Shown: positions 1,102-15,994 of the stretch, piece by piece
Layout: the number at the start of each line of letters is the position of its first letter
Position numbering within the stretch: the stretch's first letter is position 1
Assembly (NCBI RefSeq): GCF_000723405.1
Contig: NZ_CCAE010000005.1
Span: forward strand, 1 to 64,000
DNA from: Hydrogenophaga intermedia
GTDB taxonomy: Bacteria; Pseudomonadota; Gammaproteobacteria; Burkholderiales; Burkholderiaceae_C
Direction: 5' to 3'
Length of the DNA: 64,000 nucleotides
Notes under the pieces: generated by a model
Database searches by the model: none
Told to the model about the DNA's origin: nothing
The model's input: the letters and a program-made list of their open reading frames with translations, nothing else
Position numbers and translations under genes: made by a program

Positions 1102-2196
1102 TCAACGCTCCCAGTCCCTCTCCGGCTTGGCCCCGCGCGCCTTCATCGCCGCCATGTACTGCGTCAGCAGCGGCTTGGCCTGCACGCCGCGGGCTTCGTT
1201 GTTCTTCACCCATTCCTGCGCCAGGTTGGGCAGGCCGTCGATCCACTTGCGGCGCTCGGCGTCGGGCAGCGGCGTCACCGTCACCGGCGGGTTCTGGCCC
1301 TTGCCCAGCTCCACCATGCGGTTCATGGCCATCTGGTGGCGCTGCACCAGGTCTTCACCGTGGCGGCGCGTGTACTCGGCACCGGCCTCGCGCATGGCCT
1401 GCTGTACCTCGGGCGGCAGCTTGGCCCAGCTGTCCTTGTTGATGGCCACGCCACCCGAGAACACCACGCCCATGTTCACCTTGGTCACATAGGGCGCCAC
1501 CTCATAGACCTTGGCCGGCAGGATGCCCGTGGCCAGCGAGACCACGCCCTCGCTCACACCCGTCTGGATGTCGGTGTAGTAGGTGGTGAGCGCGCCGTCC
1601 ACCGGCGTGGCCCCCACGCCGCGCAGCCACAGGCCCAGGATGCCCGGCGCCGAGAGCTTGCGGCCCTTGAGGTCGTCCACCGACTTCACCGGAAACTTCG
1701 TCCAGATGTCGTAGGTGTCGGAGCCCGTGGCGCCCAGGAAGACGATGTTGTACTTGTCCCATTCGGCCTTGAAGGCCGGGTTCTTCTCGATCATCTCCGT
1801 CATCGCGCCCAGCACGATGCGCGGGTCGCTGGTGGTGAAGGGCGTGTGCGCCGCCAACTGCGACAGCGGCATCTTCGCGGGCTCCAGGTAGCTGAACACC
1901 CAGCCGATGTCGGTGATGCCCTGCTCCACGCTGGTGAGCGTGGCGTTGGCCTTGTAGAGCTGACCGCCGAAGGCCTCTTTCCACTCGATCTTGTACTTGC
2001 CCCCGGCGGCGAGGCGCTTGTCCACCTCGGGCATGAACACCTGCTGGATGAAGCCCACCCAGGGAATGGTGGTGGGGTGGCTGGAGGCCACCGTGAGCTT
2101 GATGGTCTGCTGGGCCGAGGCGGCCAGCGGCAAGGCCATGGCCGCCGAGGCGGCCATGGCGATGGCCGTGAGGCGGACGAAGGTCGAACGTTTCAT
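1102..2196 (-). CDS. TRAP transporter substrate-binding protein, DctP family
   Basis: A 364-residue periplasmic binding protein. Residues 1-28 are a clear Sec signal peptide (basic MKRSTFVR, hydrophobic core, ASAQQ cleavage region). The mature part shows DctP-family features: KLTVASSHP at the start, then segments around VDDLKGRKLSAPG and TYYTDIQTGVSEGVV that line the carboxylate pocket in this family. The ATG at 2196 is preceded by AGGAG at good spacing, and longer upstream reading has no support. It is the last gene of the dioxygenase operon. No DctQ or DctM membrane gene lies nearby, so it must use a permease encoded elsewhere. The ligand is probably an organic or aromatic acid. Confidence 0.9.
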   Translation of the reverse strand: MKRSTFVRLTAIAMAASAAMALPLAASAQQTIKLTVASSHPTTIPWVGFIQQVFMPEVDKRLAAGGKYKIEWKEAFGGQLYKANATLTSVEQGITDIGWVFSYLEPAKMPLSQLAAHTPFTTSDPRIVLGAMTEMIEKNPAFKAEWDKYNIVFLGATGSDTYDIWTKFPVKSVDDLKGRKLSAPGILGLWLRGVGATPVDGALTTYYTDIQTGVSEGVVSLATGILPAKVYEVAPYVTKVNMGVVFSGGVAINKDSWAKLPPEVQQAMREAGAEYTRRHGEDLVQRHQMAMNRMVELGKGQNPPVTVTPLPDAERRKWIDGLPNLAQEWVKNNEARGVQAKPLLTQYMAAMKARGAKPERDWER

Positions 2197-2257
2197 GCTT
2201 GTCTCCTGTTGTGAATGTCTGAACGCGAACACGAAAACGAAAACGGCGAGGGAAATC

Positions 2258-3241
2258 TCAATCAACCTGCGCGCCCGACTGGCGCACCAGCGCGGCCCAC
2301 TTGGCCACCTCGCTGCGCGCGAAGGCGTCCATGGCGTCAGGGCCCAGGGGGCGCTGCTCCACGCCTTGCGCGGCCAGCTTGCCGGCCGTCTCGGCCTTGG
2401 CCAGCGTGGCGGCCGTGGCCTGGCGCAGGCGTGCGAGCACCGGGGCCGGCGTGGCGGCCGGCGCGTACAACATGAACCAGGCCACGAGGTCGAAGTCGCT
2501 GCCGGTCTGCTCGGCGATGGTGGGCAGGTCGCGCGCGGCGGCACTGCGTTGCGCGCTGGACGCGCCCAGCGCGCGCAGCTTGCCACCCTGCATGTGCGGC
2601 AGCACGGCGGCCGGGTGGTAGAACATGAAATCGGCGCGGCCGGTCATCACGTCGTTCATGGCCATGCCACCTTCCTTGTAGGGCACGTGCAGCATCTGGC
2701 CGCCCAGGCGGGCCTTGAGCAGTTCACCCGCCAGGTGGCCCGAGGTGCCGTTGCCCGCCGAGGCGAAGGTGGCGCCCTGCCCCTGCGCGGCCTTGGCCTT
2801 GAGGTCGGCCAGGGTCTTCAGCGGCCCATCGGCCGCCACCACCAGGAAGGTCGGCGTGTAGCCCACCAGGGCGATCGGCGCGAAGTCCTTGAGCGGGTCG
2901 TAGCTCAGGTTGCGGAACAGCGTGGCGTTGATGGCGTGCGTGCCCACCGTGCCCATCACGAGTTGGTAGCCATCGGCGGCGCCCTTGGCCACCTGGTTGG
3001 AGCCCACGGTGCCGCCCGCGCCGGCGCGGTTGTCCACCACGATGGACTGGCCCAGCTCGCGGCCCAGGCCCTCGCCCACCACGCGCGAAATGATGTCGGT
3101 GGTGGTGCCGGCACCAAAGGGCACGACGAGGCGGATCGGGCGGTCCGGGTAGGTCTGCGCGGCGGCGGGCAGCGCGATGGCGCCGGCCGCGGCGCCCAAG
3201 GTCAGCAGGGCGTCGCGGCGGGTCAGGGAATGGCGGCTCAT
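2258..3241 (-). CDS. Bug-family (TctC-like) tripartite tricarboxylate receptor
   Basis: A 327-residue periplasmic receptor of the Bug family expanded in Burkholderiales. The N-terminus MSRHSLTRRDALLTLGAAAG has a twin-arginine-like RR motif before the hydrophobic core and an AAAQ-type cleavage site. The mature start YPDRPIRLVVPFGAG and the VDNRAGAGGTVG loop are family hallmarks for carboxylate binding. The ATG overlaps the CoA-transferase stop by four bases (ATGA), so it is translationally coupled to the catabolic genes. No TctA/TctB membrane subunits are adjacent. It probably captures the substrate of the operon. Confidence 0.92.
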   Translation of the reverse strand: MSRHSLTRRDALLTLGAAAGAIALPAAAQTYPDRPIRLVVPFGAGTTTDIISRVVGEGLGRELGQSIVVDNRAGAGGTVGSNQVAKGAADGYQLVMGTVGTHAINATLFRNLSYDPLKDFAPIALVGYTPTFLVVAADGPLKTLADLKAKAAQGQGATFASAGNGTSGHLAGELLKARLGGQMLHVPYKEGGMAMNDVMTGRADFMFYHPAAVLPHMQGGKLRALGASSAQRSAAARDLPTIAEQTGSDFDLVAWFMLYAPAATPAPVLARLRQATAATLAKAETAGKLAAQGVEQRPLGPDAMDAFARSEVAKWAALVRQSGAQVD

Positions 3242-4401
3242 GTGTTGGTCTCCTTCTTGGTGTGTGTCGCGCCGGGCCAGCCCTGGGCGTACAGCGCGTT
3301 GTGCTCGCCCAGTGTGGGCGGCGGGGTCACGTGCAGGCAACGCTGCCCGTCGAAACTGATGGGCGAGCGCACCGTGCGCGAGGGGCCCATCGTCGGGTGG
3401 TTCGTGTCCACGAAGAGCTGCAGGTGCTTCGCCTGCGCGTCCTCGGGCACCTCGTCGGTGCGGTACATGGGCGCGTGCGGCACGTCCTGCGCGAGCAGGC
3501 GGTCGCACCACTCCTGGCGCGTGCGGCGCTGGAAGATGTCGCGCAGGATCACGATGAGCGCGTCCTGGTTCTCGATGCGCGCGAAGCGGTCGCGAAAGCG
3601 CTCGTCCTCGAAGATGTCGGGCTTCTCCATCGCCTGCGCCAGGCCTTGCCAGAACTTCTCGGGCGAGGACATATGCAGCGCGATCCAGCCGCCGCAGGCG
3701 CATTCCAGCACGTAGCTCTGCGACACGCTGGGCCGGCTGTAGGGGCCCATCACCTCGCCCTCGGAGAAGAGGTGGGTGAAGGCGTCCAGGTTGAAGTGGG
3801 CCATGGCCTCGAACATGGACACGTCCACGCGCCGGCCGGCGCCCGTGGCGTGGCGCTCGTGCAGCGCCCCCAGGATGCCGAAGGCCGCGTAGTAGCCGGT
3901 CATGGCGTCGGCGATGGCCGGGCCCACCACCCGCGGGTTGGCCGGGTTCACCAGCAGGCGCAGGTAGCCGCTGGCGGCCTGGGCCACGGTGTCGTAGCTC
4001 GGGCGCGCGGCGGCGGGGCCGTCCTGCCCGAAGCCGCTGATGGCGCAGTAGATGAGGCGCGGGTTGAGTTCGCGCAGGCGCGCCTCGCCGGCCTGGATCT
4101 GCTCGGCAAAGCCCGGGCGGAAGTTCTGGATGTACACATCCGCGCCTTCGATCAGGCGGTCGAAGCTGGCGCGGTCCGCGTCCTTGCGCGTGTCCAGCGC
4201 CACGCTGTGCTTGTTGCGGTTGTAGGTCTGGTAGTGCGGGCTGTACAGGCCGCCCTTGAAGGCGCGGAAGGGGTCGCCCGTGCCGGGCAATTCCACCTTC
4301 ACCACCTCGGCGCCCAGGTCGGCCAGCACCATGGCGGCGGCCGGGCCGGTGATGAAGGTGCCGTGTTCGACCACGCGCAGGCCCTTGAGCACTTGGGTCA
4401 T
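3238..4401 (-). CDS. CaiB/BaiF (class III) CoA-transferase
   Basis: A 387-residue cytoplasmic enzyme of the family III CoA-transferases, which move CoA between carboxylic acids through an aspartyl-CoA anhydride. The N-terminus LKGLRVVEHGTFITGP, the ADLGAEVVKVE motif and the NPRLIYCAISGFGQDGP block are diagnostic. The expected catalytic aspartate is Asp165, in PAIADAMTGYY. Length matches the family. It lies 12 bases after the citrate-synthase-like gene and overlaps the Bug receptor gene, so in this operon it most likely activates the ring-cleavage product or a derivative to its CoA thioester. The donor and substrate cannot be read from sequence. Confidence 0.93.
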   Translation of the reverse strand: MTQVLKGLRVVEHGTFITGPAAAMVLADLGAEVVKVELPGTGDPFRAFKGGLYSPHYQTYNRNKHSVALDTRKDADRASFDRLIEGADVYIQNFRPGFAEQIQAGEARLRELNPRLIYCAISGFGQDGPAAARPSYDTVAQAASGYLRLLVNPANPRVVGPAIADAMTGYYAAFGILGALHERHATGAGRRVDVSMFEAMAHFNLDAFTHLFSEGEVMGPYSRPSVSQSYVLECACGGWIALHMSSPEKFWQGLAQAMEKPDIFEDERFRDRFARIENQDALIVILRDIFQRRTRQEWCDRLLAQDVPHAPMYRTDEVPEDAQAKHLQLFVDTNHPTMGPSRTVRSPISFDGQRCLHVTPPPTLGEHNALYAQGWPGATHTKKETNT

Positions 4402-4413
4402 CGTGCGCCCTCC

Positions 4414-5232
4414 TCAGTCGATCTTCTGCACCGGCACGAAGCCGGCGGGCACGTGGCCGGTGTAGCGCTGCTCCAGCGTGGCCTGGTAGGACAGCGCAAA
4501 GCCGATGGGCTGTTCCAGCTCCTCGCTCATGTGCGCGATGAGCCCGGCGCAGCGCGCCAGCATGGGCACCCCCTTGAGCGCGTTGAGCGGGAAGCCCACG
4601 CCCAGCAGCACGGCGGGAATCGCCGCCGACACATTCAGGCGCAGGTCCTTGCCGATCACCTCGGGCAGCACCTGCTCCACCGCTTCGGCGATCTCCACGT
4701 AGCGCTGGCCGCCACCGGCCTGCTTCGACACGCGAAACAGCGCCGACACGCGCGGGTCGCGCGCCTTGTGCACGGGGTGGCCGTAGCCGGGCACGGCCTG
4801 GCCGCGCGCGCGCCATTCGCCCACCACGGTGCGCGCGGCGGCCTTCAGGTCGCCGCCATGCTGCTCGCTGGCGCGGTGGATTTCATCGAACAGGCGCCCC
4901 GCGGTTTCCGAGGCCCCCAGGATCACCGATCCACAGCCCAGGATGCCCGCCGCCACGGCGCCCTGCAGCGCGTCGGGCGCGGCGGCCAGGGTCATGCGCG
5001 CGGCCTGCACGCTGGGCACCAGGCCATGTTCGGCAATGGCCACCAGGGTGGCGTTGAGCACGGCGCTGGCGGGCGCGTCGGGGCGCTTGCCGGTGAGCAA
5101 CAGGTAGAAGTAGTCGCCGAAGCCGAGCTGGCCGATGAGGTCCTGGCACAGGTCCTCGCCGCGCACGACGATGGTGTCGGGGTTGTGCGCGCAGATGGCC
5201 GACTGCGGCACGGTGGCCTTGCCGATTTTCAA
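4414..5232 (-). CDS. Citrate-synthase-fold enzyme, citryl-CoA lyase-like
   Basis: A 272-residue protein, much shorter than citrate synthase (about 430) and comparable to proteins annotated as citryl-CoA lyase. The two histidine motifs are present: AEHGLVPSVQAARM (His69, matching the DHG motif) and GYGHPVHKARDPR (His152). The third catalytic position, normally Asp in an NVD motif, reads NVSAAIPAVLL, so Ser202 replaces Asp. The loss is confirmed in the codons GTG TCG on the minus strand near 4630. In context it would form or cleave the C-C bond of a CoA thioester downstream of the CoA-transferase. The actual substrate is unknown and may not be citryl-CoA. Confidence 0.8.
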   Translation of the reverse strand: MKIGKATVPQSAICAHNPDTIVVRGEDLCQDLIGQLGFGDYFYLLLTGKRPDAPASAVLNATLVAIAEHGLVPSVQAARMTLAAAPDALQGAVAAGILGCGSVILGASETAGRLFDEIHRASEQHGGDLKAAARTVVGEWRARGQAVPGYGHPVHKARDPRVSALFRVSKQAGGGQRYVEIAEAVEQVLPEVIGKDLRLNVSAAIPAVLLGVGFPLNALKGVPMLARCAGLIAHMSEELEQPIGFALSYQATLEQRYTGHVPAGFVPVQKID

Positions 5233-5257
5233 AAGTCTCTCCGGTGAAAAGGAAGGG

Positions 5258-6154
5258 TCAGCGCGCCGGCACGAGGCGGAAGTCGTACGTGGCGCTGTGG
5301 TACGGCGTGTCCATGCGGCGGCCGTCGGGTGCGGTGCCGGCGGGGTGCTGCTGGAAGGGCACGATGAGGCTGTTGCGCACGCCGAAGACGGCGTCCGAAT
5401 CGAGGTAGGGGCTGTCGGCCACGAAGAGGTGCGTGGTCACCGTCTGGTGGCCGGGTGCGTACACCTTCATGTGGATGTGGCCGGGCCGGTTGGGGTGGCG
5501 GCCCATGCGGCGCAGCATGCGGCCCACGGGGCCGTCGTCGGGCACGGGGTAGAAGCTGGGCTTGATGGACCAGAAGCGGTAGTTCCCCTGCGCGTCGGTG
5601 CGAAACCGCGCGCGCAGGCGCATGCCGGCGTCCTCGCCCATCTGCATGTCGTAGATGCCCTCGCCGTCGCCGGACCACACGTCGAGGCAGCAGTTGGCGA
5701 TGGGCTGGCCCTCGGTGTCGGTGACCTGACCGTGGTAGTACGCGGGCTCGCCGGGCATGTTCTCGCCGATGTCGGCGCCCAGCGCCATCTCGGGCGAGCC
5801 TTCCCAGTAGAACGGACCTTGCACCGTGGCCTCGGTGGGCGTCTGGGCGCCACCGCCGCTTTGCTGGAAGGCACGCGCGGCCTTGATCTGGTTCAACGCC
5901 ACCACCAGCATGGAAATGCCCAGCGTGTCCGACAGCAGGATGAACTCCTGGCGCTTGTCGTCGCACATCTTGCCGGTCTCGGTGAGGAAGAAGATGGTGT
6001 TGATCCATTCCTCCTCGCTCAACTCCACCTCTCGGATGAAGGCGTGGGCGTGTTTCACCAGGGCGCTCATCACCTGCTTGAAGCGCGGGTCCTGGCAGTC
6101 GGCCATGCGGTCGAGCACGGCCTGGGTGATGTCGTTGGCGTCCAGTTGGGCCAT
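5258..6154 (-). CDS. Intradiol ring-cleavage dioxygenase, hydroxyquinol 1,2-dioxygenase-like
   Basis: A 298-residue non-haem Fe(III) dioxygenase with the N-terminal helical dimerisation domain (about residues 1-105) and the beta-sandwich catalytic domain. The four iron ligands are visible: Tyr168 (GEGIYDMQM), Tyr202 (PSFYPVPDDGP), and His226 and His228 (RPGHIHMKVYAPGH). The GIYDMQ motif resembles hydroxyquinol rather than catechol enzymes. It cleaves a catecholic or hydroxyquinol ring between the hydroxyls to a muconate or maleylacetate-type diacid. It is the first gene of a five-gene operon divergent from a LysR gene. No maleylacetate reductase or cycloisomerase gene is adjacent, which is unusual. 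Confidence 0.9.
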   Translation of the reverse strand: MAQLDANDITQAVLDRMADCQDPRFKQVMSALVKHAHAFIREVELSEEEWINTIFFLTETGKMCDDKRQEFILLSDTLGISMLVVALNQIKAARAFQQSGGGAQTPTEATVQGPFYWEGSPEMALGADIGENMPGEPAYYHGQVTDTEGQPIANCCLDVWSGDGEGIYDMQMGEDAGMRLRARFRTDAQGNYRFWSIKPSFYPVPDDGPVGRMLRRMGRHPNRPGHIHMKVYAPGHQTVTTHLFVADSPYLDSDAVFGVRNSLIVPFQQHPAGTAPDGRRMDTPYHSATYDFRLVPAR

Positions 6155-6202
6155 GGGGCTTGTCTCCTGTGGGCGGGTGCCTGTTGTTTTGATTCGCAGC
6201 GC

Positions 6203-6208
6203 AGTCTA
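6203..6208 (-). promoter_or_regulatory. Predicted -10 element of the dioxygenase operon
   Basis: The minus strand reads GCC-TAGACT here, about 49 bases before the dioxygenase ATG. No good -35 hexamer is visible at 16-18 bases, consistent with an activator-dependent promoter. The inferred transcription start is near 6196. Confidence 0.4.
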
Positions 6209-6250
6209 GGCACCCGATGACTGCGACGGAAGTGATGAATTTCGACCGCT

Positions 6251-6271
6251 ATGATCGATCGCATCGATCAT
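6251..6271. promoter_or_regulatory. Perfect inverted repeat, probable LysR operator
   Basis: A 9-bp perfect inverted repeat, ATGATCGAT / ATCGATCAT, separated by CGC, lies in the divergent intergenic region. Its centre (6261) is about 65 bases upstream of the inferred start of the dioxygenase operon, the canonical recognition-site position for LysR-type activators. It is also just before the LysR gene, so it could serve autoregulation too. Confidence 0.6.
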
Positions 6272-6289: not shown

Positions 6290-7177
6290 ATGGAACTGCG
6301 TCACCTGCGCTACTTCGACACCTTGGCCGAGACGCTGAACTTCACGCGCGCGGCCGAGCGGCTGCACGTCACCCAGTCCACGCTGTCGCACCAGATCCGC
6401 CAACTGGAGAACGAACTGGGCCTGGTGCTGTTCGACCGGTCGCACAAGAAGGTGGCCTTGACCGAGGCCGGCGAGTTGCTGCGAAGCCACCTGGTGCCCG
6501 CCCTGCAGCAGATCGACCGCGGCCTCCAGGCCCTGAGCCACCCGGGCGAGGCGCTGTCGGGCGAGCTGCGCATCGCGGCCACGCACAGCTTCAACACGCG
6601 CCTCATCCCGCTGTGTGTGTCGGCCTTCCTGGGCCAGCACCCGAACGTGAAGGTGGGCGTGGAGGAGCTGTCGGCGGAGCACATCGCCAAGCGCCTGTCC
6701 AGCGGGCACCTGGACCTGGGCGTGTCCTACCGGCCGGCCGATCGGCCCGAGCTGTGGTTCGAGCCGCTCTACAACGAGGAGCTGCGCCTGTGCGTGGCGG
6801 CGACGCATCCGCTGGCCAAGCGCCGTCGCGTGCGCCTGGTGGAACTGCACCAGCGTCGCCTGGTGTTGCTGCCCAAGCAATTCAGCACGCGCGGCCTGCT
6901 CGACGAATGCTTCGAAGCGGCGGGCGCGCAGCCACTGGTGGTGGCCGAGCTCAATTCCATCGCCCCCATGATCGAGCTCATCCGCCAGACCGACCTCGCG
7001 GGCATCATCGCCGAGACCGCCTTCACGCCCTCGCCCGAGCTGCGGCTGATTCCGCTGGAAGACCCCTCGCCGATCCGCACGCCGGGGCTGCTGTGGAAGA
7101 AGGGCGTGAACCGCTCCCCCACGGTGAAGCACATGGCTTCGGTGATCCGCCGCGCGGCGAGCGGGCACGCGGGCTGA
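6290..7177 (+). CDS. LysR-family transcriptional regulator of the ring-cleavage operon
   Basis: A 295-residue regulator. Residues 1-60 form the winged helix-turn-helix (MELRHLRYFDTLAETLNFTR, then LHVTQSTLSHQIRQLE), followed by the two-lobed effector-binding domain. The ATG at 6290 is chosen because MELRHLRYF is the conserved LysR start and AAGGAAGG precedes it. The earlier ATG at 6251 lies inside the operator palindrome. It is transcribed divergently from the dioxygenase operon, so it very likely controls that operon in response to an aromatic inducer. Confidence 0.92.
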   Translation: MELRHLRYFDTLAETLNFTRAAERLHVTQSTLSHQIRQLENELGLVLFDRSHKKVALTEAGELLRSHLVPALQQIDRGLQALSHPGEALSGELRIAATHSFNTRLIPLCVSAFLGQHPNVKVGVEELSAEHIAKRLSSGHLDLGVSYRPADRPELWFEPLYNEELRLCVAATHPLAKRRRVRLVELHQRRLVLLPKQFSTRGLLDECFEAAGAQPLVVAELNSIAPMIELIRQTDLAGIIAETAFTPSPELRLIPLEDPSPIRTPGLLWKKGVNRSPTVKHMASVIRRAASGHAG

Positions 7178-11326: not shown

Positions 11327-11830
11327 TCAGCCGTCTTCGGGCTCGGCGCCTGAGTCCTCCGGCACCTGGAGCACGGCCAGCAGGCGGTCGAGCATGGCGT
11401 AGACCTCCGCCACGAATTCAGGGCCCAGGTCGGCCTCAAGCTGGCGGTAGACGTCTTCGAGGTCGCCGCTGACGTCCTTGAACATGCGCATCGCCCGCGG
11501 CGTCAGCGAGACGTGCTGGCGGCGCTGATCGCCTTTCATGCGTTCGCGGCTCACCAGGTCCAGCGCCTCCATGCGGGCCAGCACACCCGCCAGGCTGGGG
11601 CTGGAAATGTGGCAGATGGTGCAGATCTGGCGCGGCTCCAGCGTGCCGTAGACGTCGAGCGCGCGCAGGATGCGGAACTGCTGCTCCGTCAGCCCCGTTT
11701 TCTTGAGCACCGGCCGAAAGCGCGCGATGAGCCCGCCGCGCACCTGCAGCAGCAACAGGGGCAGGTTGCGGCGCGCGCGCGGAGCGGCTGGGGGAACGGG
11801 GGTGGCTGGGGGTGTGCGGGATCGCGGCAA
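11327..11830 (-). CDS. MarR-family regulator, HpaR-like
   Basis: A 167-residue winged-helix repressor. The N-terminal region RNLPLLLLQVRGGLIARFRP followed by GLTEQQFRILRAL closely resembles HpaR, which represses homoprotocatechuate catabolism. The recognition region is ISSPSLAGVLARMEALDLV, with the wing at KGDQRRQHVSLTPRAM. The C-terminus is acidic. As last gene of the Bug-ThDP-aldehyde dehydrogenase operon, four bases after the dehydrogenase stop, it probably autoregulates the operon from the 32-bp palindrome at 15963-15994 and releases on binding an aromatic acid. Confidence 0.87.
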   Translation of the reverse strand: MPRSRTPPATPVPPAAPRARRNLPLLLLQVRGGLIARFRPVLKKTGLTEQQFRILRALDVYGTLEPRQICTICHISSPSLAGVLARMEALDLVSRERMKGDQRRQHVSLTPRAMRMFKDVSGDLEDVYRQLEADLGPEFVAEVYAMLDRLLAVLQVPEDSGAEPEDG

Positions 11831-11834
11831 GGTG

Positions 11835-13181
11835 TCAGAAGGGGTAGGCCTGGGGTTCGGTCTGGATCGTAATCGAGCGCAGATCGGTGAACTCCGCGAT
11901 GGCCGCCTTGCCGCCGAAACGGCCGTACCCGCTGTCCTTGACGCCGCCGAAAGGCAACTGCGGTTCGCTGCGCACCGTGGGCGCGTTGATGTGGCACACG
12001 CCGCAGGCCAGGCGCTGCGCCACCTGCAGGGTGCGGGAGATGTCGCGTCCGAACACGGCGCCGGCCAGGCCGTACTCGGTGTCGTTGGCCACGCGCACGG
12101 CCTCCTCCAGGTCGTTCACCCGCACGATGGCCGCGATGGGGCCGAAGGACTCGTCACCATAGACCTTCATGCCCGGCTTCACGTGGTCCAGCACCAGCGG
12201 CGCGATGCGCGCGCCGTGGCGCCGCAGCGGCACCCGGAGCTTGGCGCCGAGGGCCACCGCGTCGTCCACCATGGCGGCCACCTGCTCGGCGGCGCGTTCG
12301 CTGATGAGCGCGCCCGCCAGCGCGGGCACCTCGCGGGTGGCGAGCCGCTCGGCCTTGTCCGCCAGGGCCTGCGCGAAGCGGTCGGCGATGGACGCTTCCA
12401 CCACGATGCGTTCCGTGGACATGCAGATCTGGCCCTGGTTCATGAAGGCCCCGAAGGCGGCGGCGTTCACGGCGGCATCCACGTCGGCGTCGGCCAGCAC
12501 CACCAGCGGCGACTTGCCGCCCAGCTCCAGCAGGGCCGGCTTGAGGTATTGGCCCGCCAGCGCACCGACGATGCGCCCGGTGCGCGTGGAGCCGGTGAAG
12601 TTGACCCGGCGCACCGCCGGGTGGGCGATCAGCGCTTCCACCACCTGCGGCGCGATGGCCGGGTCGTGCGCAATGACGTTGACCACGCCAGGGGGGAAGC
12701 CCGCGTCATTGAGCAACTCGCCGATGAGGCGGTGGCTGTCGGGGCAGACCTCCGAGGCCTTCATCACCACCACATTGCCACAGGCCAGCGGCATGGCCAG
12801 CGCGCGCAATCCCAGCAGCAGCGGCGCGTTCCACGGCGCGATGCCGAGCACCACGCCCACCGGCACGCGCAGCGTCATGGCCACGCAGCCAGGCTGGTCG
12901 GACGGAATCGTCTCGCCCCCCACCTGCGTGGTGAGCGCGGCCGCCTCGCGCAGCGCGGCAATGCCGCCCTTCACGTTGAACTGCGCCCAGCCCACGGACG
13001 TGGCGGTCTCGGCCACCATGCGCTCGACGAACACGTCGGCACGCGCCTGCAGCAGATCCGCGGCCTTGCCGAGCAGCTCTCGCCGCAAACCCGGGCCGGT
13101 GCGCGACCAGGAGACAAAGGCCTGGGCGGCCGAGTCGACGACGGCGCGCGCGCCCTCCACCGTGTGCCAGTTGTGTGTCAT
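11835..13181 (-). CDS. NAD(P)-dependent aldehyde dehydrogenase
   Basis: A 448-residue enzyme, slightly shorter than the usual 480-500 at its N-terminus. Family motifs are clear: GIAPWNAPLLLGLRALAMPL, NFTGSTRTGRIVG for cofactor binding, LELGGKSPLVVL with the general base Glu, and the nucleophile Cys in NQGQICMSTERI. The IAPWNAP and GQICMST patterns resemble vanillin/benzaldehyde-type dehydrogenases. It sits 13 bases after the ThDP-enzyme gene, so it probably oxidises the aldehyde that the decarboxylase releases to a carboxylate. Confidence 0.9.
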   Translation of the reverse strand: MTHNWHTVEGARAVVDSAAQAFVSWSRTGPGLRRELLGKAADLLQARADVFVERMVAETATSVGWAQFNVKGGIAALREAAALTTQVGGETIPSDQPGCVAMTLRVPVGVVLGIAPWNAPLLLGLRALAMPLACGNVVVMKASEVCPDSHRLIGELLNDAGFPPGVVNVIAHDPAIAPQVVEALIAHPAVRRVNFTGSTRTGRIVGALAGQYLKPALLELGGKSPLVVLADADVDAAVNAAAFGAFMNQGQICMSTERIVVEASIADRFAQALADKAERLATREVPALAGALISERAAEQVAAMVDDAVALGAKLRVPLRRHGARIAPLVLDHVKPGMKVYGDESFGPIAAIVRVNDLEEAVRVANDTEYGLAGAVFGRDISRTLQVAQRLACGVCHINAPTVRSEPQLPFGGVKDSGYGRFGGKAAIAEFTDLRSITIQTEPQAYPF

Positions 13182-13194
13182 GTCGGTAGCTCCT

Positions 13195-14934
13195 TCAAAG
13201 CGGGGCGATGCGCGCGTGCAGCACCGCGCTGCGGCCTTCGTCGAGCGCGCGGATGCAGCGCGCGACGGCGTCGTCGATGTCCTTCGGGTCGCTCACGCGC
13301 TCGCCATGCGCGCCGGCGGCTTCGCCCACGGCGGCGAAGTCCATGTCGCGAGGCAACAGCGAGGCGTATTCGCCGCTGTGAAAGGCGTGGCCCCCGGGGT
13401 ACATGCGCAGGGTCGACTCCTTCACCGCGGCCCAGCCGCTGTTGTCCAGCACCACCGTGAAGATGGGCACGCCATATTCGCGTGCCACCGCGTAGGTGGA
13501 CGTGGGGTTGCTGAAGTAGAAGGTGCCGTCGCCGACGAAGTGCACCACGCGCCGCTGGGGGTGGGCCAGCTTCATGCCCAGCGCCGTGCCGGCCGAAAAG
13601 CCCAGCCCGCCCCCCGGAAGGCCCATCAGCGTGCCCGGCTGTTGGCGCGGCACCTGCTCGAACACGGTCAGCGTGTGGCGGATGCCTTCGTTGAGCACGA
13701 TGTCGTCTTCACCGAGGGCGCGGTGGATGGCAGCGCACAAGTGCGCGGCGTTGATGGCGCCCGGCTCGCCCGGCGCGCGCGCGGCGTCGGCCACGCGCTG
13801 GCCACGCTCGGCGTGCTCGGCGCCCAGCCGCACCAGACGCGCGGCCGCGCGCGCTTCAAAGGCCGGTGTGGCCAGGGCCTTCACCGCTTCGATCAGATCG
13901 GTCAGCAGCAGCTCGCTGTCGCCTTGCAGGCGCAGGTCGGTGGCGAAGCCCCACATCGGCATGTCGCGCTTGAGCGCATCCACGTCGATCTGCGCCCACC
14001 AGGCCTTGGGGTTGACGTTCGTGGTCTTGGGCACCCAGGGCACGTCCACGTCCAGCATCAGGCCAACATCGGCGCGTTCGGCGAACGGGCCGGGCAGGTA
14101 GCCGCCGAAGCAGGGGCTGTCTCGGCGGATGTTCAGGTGCACGCTGTTGAATTCGCACACGCGCATGCCGATCAGCGTGGACAGCGCCTCCACCAGCGCC
14201 GGCACGCGGGGGTTGCGGCCGGCGTAGGCGGTGACCAGCAAGGGGTCTTCTGCCGCCACCAGGCGCTCGGCGATTCGTTGGATGTCGTCGGGCCGGGCGC
14301 CACCCGCTCGCACGGGCTGGTGATGCGCGGCCGTGAACGGGTGCAGCTCGTCCGGCGGGCACGGCGCGGCCAGCACCTCGCGCGGCAGCATCAGGTACAC
14401 GGGGCCGGGTGGGTCGCTCTGCATCACGGCGTGCGCGCGCGCGATCACCTCCTCGGCCATCGACGGCCAGGGCAGCGTGTATTCCCACTTCACGTACGGG
14501 CGCACCACGCTGCCCTGGTCGAAGGGTTCCTGCACGAAATGCACGTAGGTGTCGCGGCCGCCCTCCACGCCGTTGAAGGTGGTGGCCGGCGCGCGGCCCG
14601 CCATCAGCAGGATGGGCACGCGCGCGCGGAACAGGTTGTGCAGCCCCATGGCGGCATTGGCCGTGCCCGCGTCCACGTGCACCAGCACGGCCTGGCCACG
14701 GCCGGTGGCCACCGCGTAGCCGCCGGCCATGTGGATCGCCGTGTTCTCGTGCGGGCACAGCACCAACTCTGGCAAGCGCCGGCCCGCTTCGCGCCAGCGC
14801 GCCATCTCCTCGATGAGGGGCGCGTGGTCGGTGCCGAGGTTGCAGAACAGGTAGTCGATGCCACGGTCCAGCAGGGCCTGGAGCAGGTGGTGCGAGGCGC
14901 TGCGCGCCGTCTCGTGGGGGCTGTCGGGGAGCAT
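13195..14934 (-). CDS. Thiamine diphosphate-dependent enzyme (2-oxoacid decarboxylase / acetolactate synthase-like)
   Basis: A 579-residue ThDP enzyme with the three usual domains. The cofactor-activating glutamate is in CPHENTAIHMAGGYA (Glu about residue 56), and the ThDP/Mg motif runs from VGDGTFYFSNPTS to LDNSGWAAV near residue 480. The N-terminal motif LGTDHAPLIEEM differs from classic acetolactate synthase or benzoylformate decarboxylase. With an aldehyde dehydrogenase and HpaR-like regulator in the same operon, decarboxylation of an (aryl) 2-oxoacid to an aldehyde is the best guess. Carboligation or C-C lyase chemistry cannot be excluded. Confidence 0.85.
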   Translation of the reverse strand: MLPDSPHETARSASHHLLQALLDRGIDYLFCNLGTDHAPLIEEMARWREAGRRLPELVLCPHENTAIHMAGGYAVATGRGQAVLVHVDAGTANAAMGLHNLFRARVPILLMAGRAPATTFNGVEGGRDTYVHFVQEPFDQGSVVRPYVKWEYTLPWPSMAEEVIARAHAVMQSDPPGPVYLMLPREVLAAPCPPDELHPFTAAHHQPVRAGGARPDDIQRIAERLVAAEDPLLVTAYAGRNPRVPALVEALSTLIGMRVCEFNSVHLNIRRDSPCFGGYLPGPFAERADVGLMLDVDVPWVPKTTNVNPKAWWAQIDVDALKRDMPMWGFATDLRLQGDSELLLTDLIEAVKALATPAFEARAAARLVRLGAEHAERGQRVADAARAPGEPGAINAAHLCAAIHRALGEDDIVLNEGIRHTLTVFEQVPRQQPGTLMGLPGGGLGFSAGTALGMKLAHPQRRVVHFVGDGTFYFSNPTSTYAVAREYGVPIFTVVLDNSGWAAVKESTLRMYPGGHAFHSGEYASLLPRDMDFAAVGEAAGAHGERVSDPKDIDDAVARCIRALDEGRSAVLHARIAPL

Positions 14935-14944
14935 GGGTTCCTGG

Positions 14945-15919
14945 TCAGTTGGTCGTGGCGGCCAGGCCGGCGGCGCGCACGGCGGGCGCGAAGGCCTTCT
15001 GCTCGGCCTGAATGCGCTGGCGAATCGCCTCGGGGCCTGCGAAGTCGCTTTCGTGGCCGAGCTTGGCGAAGGCTTCTCGCATGGCCGGCGTGGCCAAGGC
15101 CTTTTCCAGCTCGCCCGACAGGCGCTTGAGCACGCCCGGGGGCGTGCCGGCCGGGGCGTACAACGCCAGCCAGACCTCGTACTCCGTGCCGGGGAAGCCC
15201 GCCTCGGCCAGGGTCGGCACGTCGGGGAGGAAGGGCGAACGCTTCTGCGAGGCAACGGCCAAGGGACGCAGGCCGCCGGACTTGATCTGCCCACTGAGCG
15301 GCGCCAGATCGGCCATCACCATGACCGCACGGCCCGTGACCAGGTCCGAGATCGCTGGCGTGAAGCCGTTGTAGGGCACGTGGATCATCCTGGCGCCGGC
15401 ACTTTGCACCAGCATCTCGGTGCCCACGTGGGCCATGGAGCCCACGCCATTGCTGGCGTAGGCCAGCGAGCCGTCCTTGGTCTTCGGATCGGCGAACAGC
15501 TCCTTCACCGTCTTGTAGGGCTGCGTGCTGGACACGGTGAGGAAGAACGGCAGGCGCGACACCATGCCGACCGGCGCGAAGTCCTTGAGCGGGTCGAACG
15601 CCAGCTTGGCCTGCGTGAGCGGCAGCAGCGTCATGGTGGAGCCACCGGTCAACAGAAGCGTGTAGCCATCGGGCGTGGCGCGCGCCACCGTGGAGGCGCC
15701 GATCACCGTGTTGCCTCCGGGCTTGGCCTCCACGATCACGCTCTGCCCCATCGAATCGCCCAGCGCCTGCGCCACCAGGCGTGCGGCGGCGTCGACACCG
15801 CCCCCGGCCGCATAAGGAATGACGATGCGAATGGTCTTGTTGGGAAAGCTGTCCTGCGCGTGGCCCGCCAGCGTCGCAGCGCACAGCAGCGCGGCGACGG
15901 CCCATCGAACGAGTTTCAT
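14945..15919 (-). CDS. Bug-family (TctC-like) tripartite tricarboxylate receptor
   Basis: A 324-residue periplasmic receptor with a Sec signal peptide (MKLVRWAVAALLCAATLAG, then HAQDS). The mature part begins SFPNKTIRIVIPYAAGGG and has the VEAKPGGNTVIG loop, both family markers. It is the first gene of the ThDP/aldehyde dehydrogenase operon, ten bases before the next gene, and the only transport component in it. It probably captures the 2-oxoacid or aromatic acid that the operon degrades. The ATG at 15919 is used because the signal peptide starts there. Confidence 0.92.
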   Translation of the reverse strand: MKLVRWAVAALLCAATLAGHAQDSFPNKTIRIVIPYAAGGGVDAAARLVAQALGDSMGQSVIVEAKPGGNTVIGASTVARATPDGYTLLLTGGSTMTLLPLTQAKLAFDPLKDFAPVGMVSRLPFFLTVSSTQPYKTVKELFADPKTKDGSLAYASNGVGSMAHVGTEMLVQSAGARMIHVPYNGFTPAISDLVTGRAVMVMADLAPLSGQIKSGGLRPLAVASQKRSPFLPDVPTLAEAGFPGTEYEVWLALYAPAGTPPGVLKRLSGELEKALATPAMREAFAKLGHESDFAGPEAIRQRIQAEQKAFAPAVRAAGLAATTN

Positions 15920-15962
15920 GCCTTGTCTCCTGGATGTTTTTTCCAGCGGACAACGGTGTCCG

Positions 15963-15994
15963 CCGCAAATCACTCACATGTGAGTGATTTGCGG
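15963..15994. promoter_or_regulatory. 32-bp perfect palindrome, probable MarR/HpaR-like operator
   Basis: The half-site CCGCAAATCACTCACA is followed at once by its exact reverse complement, with no mismatch over 32 bp. It lies 44-75 bases before the Bug receptor ATG and directly abuts a minus-strand -10-like TATGCT (15995-16000), so a bound repressor would cover the transcription start. MarR-family proteins bind such palindromes, and the operon ends with an HpaR-like gene. Confidence 0.75.

What the first reader, a model, noticed from the sequence alone, without database searches (positions are those of the whole stretch)
1102..6271. Operon pairing ring cleavage with CoA transfer and a citrate-synthase-fold lyase: candidate undescribed aromatic lower pathway
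The sequence shows, in one transcription unit, an intradiol dioxygenase, a citrate-synthase-fold lyase, a class III CoA-transferase and two periplasmic carboxylate receptors, with LysR divergent. Known intradiol routes continue by cycloisomerase or maleylacetate reductase and a 3-oxoadipyl-CoA thiolase, none of which is here. Inference: the ring-opened acid is made into a CoA thioester and split in a retro-Claisen or retro-aldol step by the citrate-synthase-like enzyme.
Basis: partly seen in the sequence, partly recalled or inferred. Interest (0 to 1): 0.75.

Follow-up and report, generated by a model that had tools for sequence, protein, structure and literature searches.

The report
Unusual bacterial aromatic-breakdown gene cluster
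A group of soil and water bacteria carry a conserved gene set that seems to open an aromatic ring, attach coenzyme A to the product and cut it with a modified relative of citrate synthase, a route not found described in the papers searched; which compound it breaks down is still unknown.

Summary
In 26 loci found by the lyase alone, a CoA-activating enzyme is adjacent in 26 and a ring-cleaving dioxygenase lies within 10 kb in 16. In 21 paralog control loci the numbers are 4 and 0. The ring opener is exchanged between loci (several intradiol lineages or a LigB-type extradiol) and the CoA activator can be an AMP-forming ligase, which points to one CoA-dependent lower pathway.

But four genomes carry dioxygenase, transferase and lyase without it.

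Simple citryl-CoA cleavage is not supported: the lyase lacks both acetyl-CoA-activating residues of citrate synthase (His274 and Asp375 equivalents), keeps the oxaloacetate-side ones and has an almost invariant His155 and a Ser or Asn at 202. The dioxygenase has Gln where solved hydroxyquinol enzymes have Phe or Leu. Substrate and exact reaction remain unproven.

The parts
5258..6154 (-). Intradiol ring-cleavage dioxygenase (DIOX1), 298 aa; Fe ligands Tyr168, Tyr202, His226, His228; pocket Gln112 where the solved hydroxyquinol enzymes have Phe or Leu
   Evidence: ligand assignment by alignment, roles recalled
4414..5232 (-). Citrate-synthase-fold 'citryl-CoA lyase' (LYASE), 272 aa, TTG start; H69, H152, R161, R227 kept; I104 and S202 in place of catalytic His274 and Asp375; H155 almost invariant
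3238..4401 (-). Class III (CaiB/BaiF) CoA-transferase (COAT), 387 aa, Asp165 at the catalytic-Asp position (assignment of the catalytic Asp recalled)
2258..3241 (-). Periplasmic Bug/TctC-type carboxylate receptor
   Evidence: (PF03401, 200 bits)
1102..2196 (-). TRAP-type DctP solute receptor; no TRAP permease gene was seen next to it, but a DctP-DctQ-DctM set is beside the second dioxygenase DIOX2 at G000:C11
6155..6289 (.). Intergenic control region: ATCGAT-type repeats, GAAAnTnATCACTTCC and CCTAGACT blocks conserved in 13 aligned loci (12 relatives and the window)
6290..7177 (+). Divergent LysR-type regulator (LysR1); orthologs beside the COAT-LYASE pair in other genera

Best explanation
The operon encodes a CoA-dependent lower pathway for an aromatic ring, separate from the classical hydroxyquinol/3-oxoadipate route that the same genome also carries. 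DIOX1 opens a polyhydroxylated ring (shown: family and Fe ligands; inferred: activity; unknown: substrate, probably a hydroxyquinol or pyrogallol-type ring with an extra polar group). COAT turns the resulting oxo-dicarboxylic acid into a CoA thioester (inferred from family and constant adjacency). LYASE, a citrate-synthase-fold enzyme with a remodelled active site, cuts a carbon-carbon bond of that thioester, giving acetyl-CoA and a C4-type acid such as oxaloacetate, maleate or a related oxo acid (inferred). The Bug and DctP receptors feed substrate uptake and LysR1 controls the set (inferred).
For: Neighbourhood count on loci found by LYASE alone: CoA activator adjacent in 26 of 26, ring-cleaving dioxygenase within 10 kb in 16 of 26, against 4 of 21 and 0 of 21 for paralog loci (Fisher p 2e-9 and 4e-6). 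CoA-transferase is replaced by an AMP-forming ligase in L141, Cupriavidus pBB2 and Bosea, so the constant is CoA activation. Ring-cleaving enzymes are swapped: the DIOX1 clade; a distinct intradiol in L144; another in pBB2; a LigB-type class III extradiol in Aminobacter MSH1, Sinorhizobium, Martelella, Neorhizobium and L147, best solved relative gallate dioxygenase. The same partners occur with either type: amidohydrolase 62% identical between L046 and Martelella, UroD/MetE-like protein 77% identical between L072 and Aminobacter. Four genomes (G183, G078, G198, G647) have intradiol+COAT+LYASE and no maleylacetate reductase ortholog. The DIOX1 pocket differs from that of all 15 DIOX2 copies compared. 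Equivalents of His238, His320, Arg329 and Arg401 of pig citrate synthase (roles partly recalled) are kept.
Against: 10 of 26 LYASE loci show no intradiol or LigB gene within 10 kb (5 of these have a small glyoxalase-family/VOC protein of unknown role, 5 have neither), and L140, L142, L143 and L155 have LysR1, COAT and LYASE without any recognised dioxygenase in the fetched stretch. Maleylacetate reductase is adjacent in L061 and L140, and an ortholog is in 22 of 25 distinct trio-type genomes tested, including seven Comamonadaceae with no DIOX2 hit of 57% or more (G130, G118, G199, G101, G192, G071, G090), so the reductase is not tied to DIOX2 alone. LYASE lacks the two residues that activate acetyl-CoA in citrate synthase. 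The Gln pocket change is not universal: of 26 distinct Comamonadaceae DIOX1, 2 have Glu and 1 Leu; linked intradiols elsewhere have Leu or Thr as well as Gln; Glu also occurs in 4 unlinked intradiols. With looser matching, 7 of 21 control loci have some class III CoA-transferase within 5 kb. No biochemical data.
Confidence: 0.6

Rival explanations
1. COAT and LYASE work after maleylacetate reductase in an otherwise ordinary hydroxyquinol pathway: COAT makes 3-oxoadipyl-CoA in place of PcaIJ and LYASE splits it in place of the thiolase; DIOX1 is an isoenzyme of hydroxyquinol 1,2-dioxygenase.
For: Best solved relatives of DIOX1 are hydroxyquinol dioxygenases. Maleylacetate reductase is immediately upstream of DIOX1 in L061 and in the COAT-LYASE operon of L140. 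It is within 16 kb of DIOX1 in 12 of 25 distinct genomes, and occurs in seven trio genomes that show no DIOX2 hit of 57% or more.
Against: G183, G078, G198 and G647 have the set without a maleylacetate reductase ortholog. PcaIJ-like and thiolase genes sit near the reductase in some relatives, e.g. L113 and L116 (thiolase domain of L113 checked), and in the own genome PcaIJ and a thiolase are together, so no gap needs filling there. DIOX2, not DIOX1, has the pocket of solved hydroxyquinol enzymes, and all six genomes with a DIOX2 hit of 57% or more have the reductase.
Confidence: 0.17
2. COAT and LYASE act before ring cleavage or on a separately imported carboxylate (for example shortening a side chain of the aromatic, or using a citrate-like acid delivered by the Bug receptor), and share only regulation with DIOX1.
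For: LysR1, COAT and LYASE occur together without a recognised dioxygenase (L140, L142, L143, L155). Bug/TctC genes are within 5 kb in 14 of 26 loci, and in 14 of 21 controls. Some loci also hold aconitase-family LeuC-like genes (L142, L148, L152, L156).
Against: Several different ring-cleaving enzymes are found beside the pair. Conserved arginines matching the dicarboxylate-binding ones of citrate synthase (role recalled) fit an aliphatic oxo acid better than an aromatic side chain (inference).
Confidence: 0.2
3. LYASE is not a carbon-carbon lyase: with the His274 and Asp375 equivalents gone it could be a hydrolase, hydratase or isomerase on the CoA thioester, with cleavage done elsewhere (for example a BKACE, HMG-CoA-lyase-like or thiolase enzyme).
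For: Neither residue is present in any of the 27 LYASE-clade rows with coverage or the 17 paralog rows, nor in the 22 further loci. pBB2 carries CaiB, HMG-CoA lyase, LeuC and LeuD a few kb from LYASE.
Against: The fold and the oxaloacetate-side residues are kept, and no other lyase gene was noticed in the window operon or in most of the loci read.
Confidence: 0.25

Closest known systems
Hydroxyquinol 1,2-dioxygenase (1tmx, PnpC 3n9t, 6-chlorohydroxyquinol dioxygenase 8r2x)
   Same: Same family and the same Fe ligands; 235-271 bits
   Different: Pocket VQGPF and PGHIH instead of VFGPF and AHLH, SHLH or AHMH; travels with COAT-LYASE
Citryl-CoA lyase (6hxp) and the citryl-CoA lyase module of ATP-citrate lyase
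   Same: Closest solved sequence (109 bits) and top Foldseek hit; keeps the H238, H320, R329 and R401 equivalents
   Different: His274 to Ile/Val and Asp375 to Ser (Asn in five loci); His at 155 (Tyr in L147); genomic link to ring cleavage
3-Oxoadipate pathway from hydroxyquinol (maleylacetate reductase, PcaIJ, PcaF)
   Same: Begins with the same dioxygenase family and is present in the same genome; also uses a CoA-transferase and yields acetyl-CoA (recalled)
   Different: Class III CoA-transferase and CS-fold protein instead of class I transferase and thiolase; the set occurs in genomes without maleylacetate reductase
Gallate/protocatechuate class III extradiol pathways
   Same: A LigB-type gene takes the place of DIOX1 in alphaproteobacterial versions; gallate dioxygenase is its best solved relative
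   Different: No OMA hydratase or CHA aldolase is named among the annotated features of the regions read (L151, L154, L157); CoA activation plus LYASE instead

Membership tests
Hydroxyquinol 1,2-dioxygenase | Dioxygenase_N and Dioxygenase_C domains and Tyr, Tyr, His, His iron ligands | tested here: met
Hydroxyquinol 1,2-dioxygenase | Pocket motif V[FL]GPF as in the five solved relatives | tested here: not met
   VQGPF in the window; 23 Q, 2 E, 1 L among 26 distinct linked DIOX1 of the family; five solved relatives all F or L
Hydroxyquinol 1,2-dioxygenase | Converts hydroxyquinol to maleylacetate | not testable with these tools
   needs enzyme assay
Citryl-CoA lyase / citrate synthase | Citrate-synthase fold | tested here: met
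   PF00285; NF004868 above cut-off; Foldseek top hit 6hxp, TM 0.64 but rmsd 11.8, on a model of mean pLDDT 65.6
Citryl-CoA lyase / citrate synthase | Catalytic His274 and Asp375 equivalents | tested here: not met
   Ile104 and Ser202; absent in all 27 clade rows with coverage (L040 covers only the first position) and in 22 further loci; role of the residues from passages of PMC8455617
Citryl-CoA lyase / citrate synthase | His238, His320, Arg329, Arg401 equivalents | tested here: met
   numbering and the role of the arginines recalled
Class III CoA-transferase | PF02515 family and catalytic Asp | tested here: met
   (Asp165); identity of the catalytic Asp recalled
Class III CoA-transferase | CoA donor and acceptor | not testable with these tools
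   no NCBIfam equivalog reached its cut-off
Classical hydroxyquinol/3-oxoadipate operon | Maleylacetate reductase accompanies the dioxygenase | tested here: not met
   no ortholog in G183, G078, G198 and G647, which carry the set; not in the window's operon but elsewhere in its genome

The most novel reading that the evidence does not exclude
A general CoA-dependent aromatic lower pathway in Pseudomonadota: intradiol or LigB-type extradiol enzymes feed the same ring-fission acid to a CoA-activating enzyme and then to a citrate-synthase-fold enzyme with a new active site (His155 and Ser/Asn202 with His274 and Asp375 gone). Intradiol and this kind of extradiol cleavage give the same acid only for rings with three neighbouring hydroxyls. 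A ring such as 1,2,3,5-tetrahydroxybenzene would give 2,4-dioxoadipate, whose CoA thioester would split into acetyl-CoA and oxaloacetate, the natural ligands of the fold.
Probability: 0.2. Interest if true: 0.8.

Novelty: new variant of a known kind. Interest (0 to 1): 0.58.

Why it matters
If right, it adds a lower pathway for ring-fission products that bypasses maleylacetate reductase and the 3-oxoadipyl-CoA thiolase. It also gives a function to a widespread family annotated 'citryl-CoA lyase' whose catalytic residues do not support that name: 7934 of 8000 scored candidates in a large protein set match it at E <= 0.001, a capped number that includes distant members. The module sits on a plasmid typed conjugative in Aminobacter MSH1 and one typed mobilizable in Burkholderia glumae, so it can move between bacteria. 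The question can be settled with three proteins and a panel of trihydroxy- and tetrahydroxybenzenes.

Tried and rejected
(2) Plain hydroxyquinol identity for DIOX1; doubtful because DIOX2 in the same genome has the canonical pocket and DIOX1 does not. (3) Plain citryl-CoA lyase identity; rejected on residues. (4) An obligatory LeuCD hydratase step: LeuC-like genes are near LYASE in L142, L148, L152 and L156, with LeuD shown in the last three; all 35 genomes searched hold at least one LeuC-like gene, so presence alone says nothing. (5) Literature: ten searches listed no paper that I recognised as describing the trio; only CC0, CC BY and CC BY-SA papers are held, so 'not in print' is limited to those searches. 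Papers seen as passages only: PMC9420511, PMC2864759, PMC8879955, PMC6449761, PMC4524684, PMC8455617; all others as search listings. (6) An AlphaFold model of LYASE has mean pLDDT 65.6; used only for the fold.

Limits of the counts: trio LYASE rows identical in sequence were dropped before alignment; L040 covers only part of LYASE; the 27 clade rows include L018 (G053), which has no dioxygenase nearby; the degenerate intradiol at L046/L063 (no GPF motif) was left out of the DIOX2 tally; G118 and G210 are the same genome (25 distinct genomes). In one search some seed proteins came from the loci being counted or from plasmid loci found later (a second intradiol from L144, a third from pBB2, LigB from Aminobacter, AMP ligase from pBB2); the L144 intradiol was also found with DIOX2. 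The controls are all from family genomes, the cases from family, order and phylum samples; within the family alone it is 14 of 15 against 0 of 21. Gene calls in fetched loci are my own GC3-based ORF calls, which missed genes in low-GC loci (L144, L148) until tblastn was used. The small partner ORF beside LigB has no Pfam match; in Neorhizobium L160 COAT is matched only in two pieces.
Full report
WHAT IS THERE. The window comes from a Hydrogenophaga-like bacterium: the nearest named relatives of the dioxygenase locus are Hydrogenophaga (96% and 92% protein identity). The minus strand carries DIOX1 (5258-6154), LYASE (4414-5232), COAT (3238-4401), a Bug/TctC receptor (2258-3241) and a DctP receptor (1102-2196), with LysR1 divergent. 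Spacing is 25 bp, 12 bp, a 4-bp overlap and 61 bp. Blocks of the control region are conserved in 13 loci.

CONSERVATION. Searching 200 family genomes with LYASE alone gave 15 loci at 61-100% identity, own genome included. Adding 399 order and 398 phylum genomes at E<=1e-70 brought this to 26 loci in 25 genomes. Within 5 kb of LYASE, 25 of 26 have a COAT relative (51-100% identity) and the other has an AMP-forming ligase. Within 10 kb, 15 of 26 have an intradiol dioxygenase and 1 a LigB; of the other ten, five have a small glyoxalase-family (VOC) protein and five have neither. As a control, 21 loci of paralogous LYASEs (33-41%, all from family genomes) gave 0 ring-cleaving dioxygenases and 4 CoA activators at the same thresholds (Fisher p 4e-6 and 2e-9). 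With looser matching, 7 of 21 controls have a class III CoA-transferase, and some further paralogs sit beside ligase-like genes. So CoA activation may be a trait of the wider family, while the link to intradiol or LigB enzymes was seen only in this clade. One control locus (L180) has a maleylacetate reductase and a 319-aa glyoxalase-family protein nearby.

THE RING OPENER IS EXCHANGEABLE. In Aminobacter MSH1 plasmid pUSP2 the order is TRAP genes, CocE hydrolase, UroD/MetE-like, LYASE, COAT, LigB-type extradiol, small ORF without a Pfam match. Sinorhizobium B11, Neorhizobium galegae and Martelella have LYASE, COAT and LigB together, two of them with an annotated amidohydrolase (COAT of Neorhizobium matched in two pieces). 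L147 has LigB, COAT, LYASE and a FAD hydroxylase. The Aminobacter LigB's best solved relative is gallate dioxygenase (78 bits). A Burkholderia glumae plasmid has intradiol, LYASE, FAD hydroxylase, COAT, LeuC, LeuD. Cupriavidus pBB2 has LYASE, AMP ligase and a different intradiol. L144 has LysR1, LYASE, COAT, a third kind of intradiol, TRAP genes and a nitroreductase-like gene. The same auxiliary proteins occur with both kinds of ring opener: the amidohydrolase of L046 (intradiol) is 62% identical to that of Martelella (extradiol), and the UroD/MetE-like protein of L072 (intradiol) is 77% identical to that of Aminobacter. From general chemistry (recalled), an intradiol enzyme and a gallate-dioxygenase-like extradiol enzyme give the same diacid only if the ring has three neighbouring hydroxyls; this is the basis of the novel reading and is not shown.

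RELATION TO THE CLASSICAL ROUTE. In 10 of 14 DIOX1 loci (identity 68% or more) a second intradiol, DIOX2 (45-50% to DIOX1), lies within 10 kb. A wider cluster surrounds it in several relatives, with TRAP, YCII, Dabb, SnoaL, nitroreductase (NCBIfam: malonic semialdehyde reductase), PcaI and PcaJ, thiolase, 3-hydroxyisobutyrate-dehydrogenase-like, amidohydrolase and maleylacetate reductase genes (not every locus has every gene). Maleylacetate reductase orthologs (best solved relatives 3jzd, 507 bits, and maleylacetate reductase 3w5s, 371 bits) are in 22 of 25 distinct trio-type genomes, and within 16 kb of DIOX1 in 12. In the window's genome these parts are dispersed: DIOX2 at C11, reductase at C16 and C97, PcaIJ and a thiolase at C8. 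But G183, G078 and G198 have DIOX1, LYASE and COAT with no reductase ortholog and no second dioxygenase hit at E<=1e-30. G647, a single-contig genome, has intradiol, COAT and LYASE and no reductase hit at E<=1e-60. DIOX2-type hits of 57% or more occur in six of the 20 genomes searched, all of which have the reductase (the 57% hit in G868 was not checked for its pocket). Against a clean split, seven Comamonadaceae genomes have the reductase without such a hit (G130, G118, G199, G101, G192, G071, G090), and so does G527.

ACTIVE SITES. DIOX1 keeps the four iron ligands. At the position of Phe108 of 1tmx it has Gln112. Across 26 distinct linked DIOX1 of the family this is Q in 23, E in 2 and L in 1; all 15 DIOX2-type copies have F; of the more distant, unlinked intradiols in the set some have L and four have E. 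Linked intradiols in the further loci have Q (L159), L (L152, L144) or T (pBB2). LYASE aligns without gaps to citryl-CoA lyase 6hxp around the catalytic positions: His274 is replaced by Ile104 and Asp375 by Ser202. In the 27 clade rows the first is I or V throughout and the second S in all 26 that cover it; none of 17 paralog rows has the His or Asp. In 22 further loci the second is S in 17 and N in 5. PMC8455617 (passages) says acetyl-CoA bonds to His274 and Asp375 in citrate synthase; a solved entry of human ACLY D1026A with substrates also appears among the fold hits. H69, H152, R161 and R227 (equivalents of His238, His320, Arg329, Arg401; roles partly recalled) are invariant in the alignments. 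H155 is too, but is Tyr in L147. COAT keeps an Asp (165) at the position of the family's catalytic Asp (recalled).

MECHANISM. Shown: gene order, conservation, co-location with CoA activation and ring cleavage, residue changes, fold. Inferred: ring opening by DIOX1, thioester by COAT, C-C cleavage by LYASE. Two concrete outcomes are compatible. One is acetyl-CoA plus maleate from a maleylacetyl thioester, which would suit the LeuC/LeuD-like genes seen near four loci (maleate hydratases of this family are recalled, not checked). The other is acetyl-CoA plus oxaloacetate from a dioxoadipyl thioester, which would suit the conserved oxaloacetate-side residues. I cannot choose between them.

VERDICT. 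A real, conserved CoA-dependent lower pathway, not found described in the searches made, is likely (0.6). The simple citryl-CoA-lyase chemistry is not supported. It is a new variant of a known kind: aromatic catabolism by ring cleavage, CoA activation and C-C cleavage, with an unusual last enzyme.

Noticed in passing
11327-15973: A second possible catabolic set: HpaR-type MarR regulator (TIGR02337 just above cut-off), aldehyde dehydrogenase, a ThDP enzyme of the PRK08327 family (frame 13195-15294) and a TctC receptor.
   Followed up: partly
L035-L045, L109-L116: Large hydroxyquinol-type cluster in Hydrogenophaga and Polaromonas with YCII, Dabb, SnoaL, nitroreductase, two 3-hydroxyisobutyrate-dehydrogenase-like proteins and a TRZ/ATZ-type amidohydrolase (NF006056) of unknown role beside maleylacetate reductase.
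   Followed up: partly
L152 (Burkholderia glumae plasmid), L142, L148, L156: Aconitase-family LeuC-like genes (LeuD shown in L148, L152, L156) near COAT and LYASE or, in L156, a few kb away beside CaiB and HMG-CoA lyase; possibly a hydratase of the pathway rather than leucine biosynthesis.
   Followed up: partly
L145, L146, L149, L150: Loci of one family (f85) of the same phylum: COAT-LYASE with a small glyoxalase-family protein and, in some, MetE-like, IclR or WrbA-like proteins but no intradiol or LigB gene; the ring-cleaving enzyme, if any, is unknown.
   Followed up: partly
L046 at 2257 and L063 at 12397: A degenerate intradiol dioxygenase paralog lacking the GPF pocket motif beside the trio (the two loci look like the same contig).
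   Followed up: no
NC_007974.2 858781-859527: C. metallidurans CH34 encodes a 54% LYASE relative although its genome paper says no citryl-CoA lyase is encoded; given the residues, both can be right.
   Followed up: no
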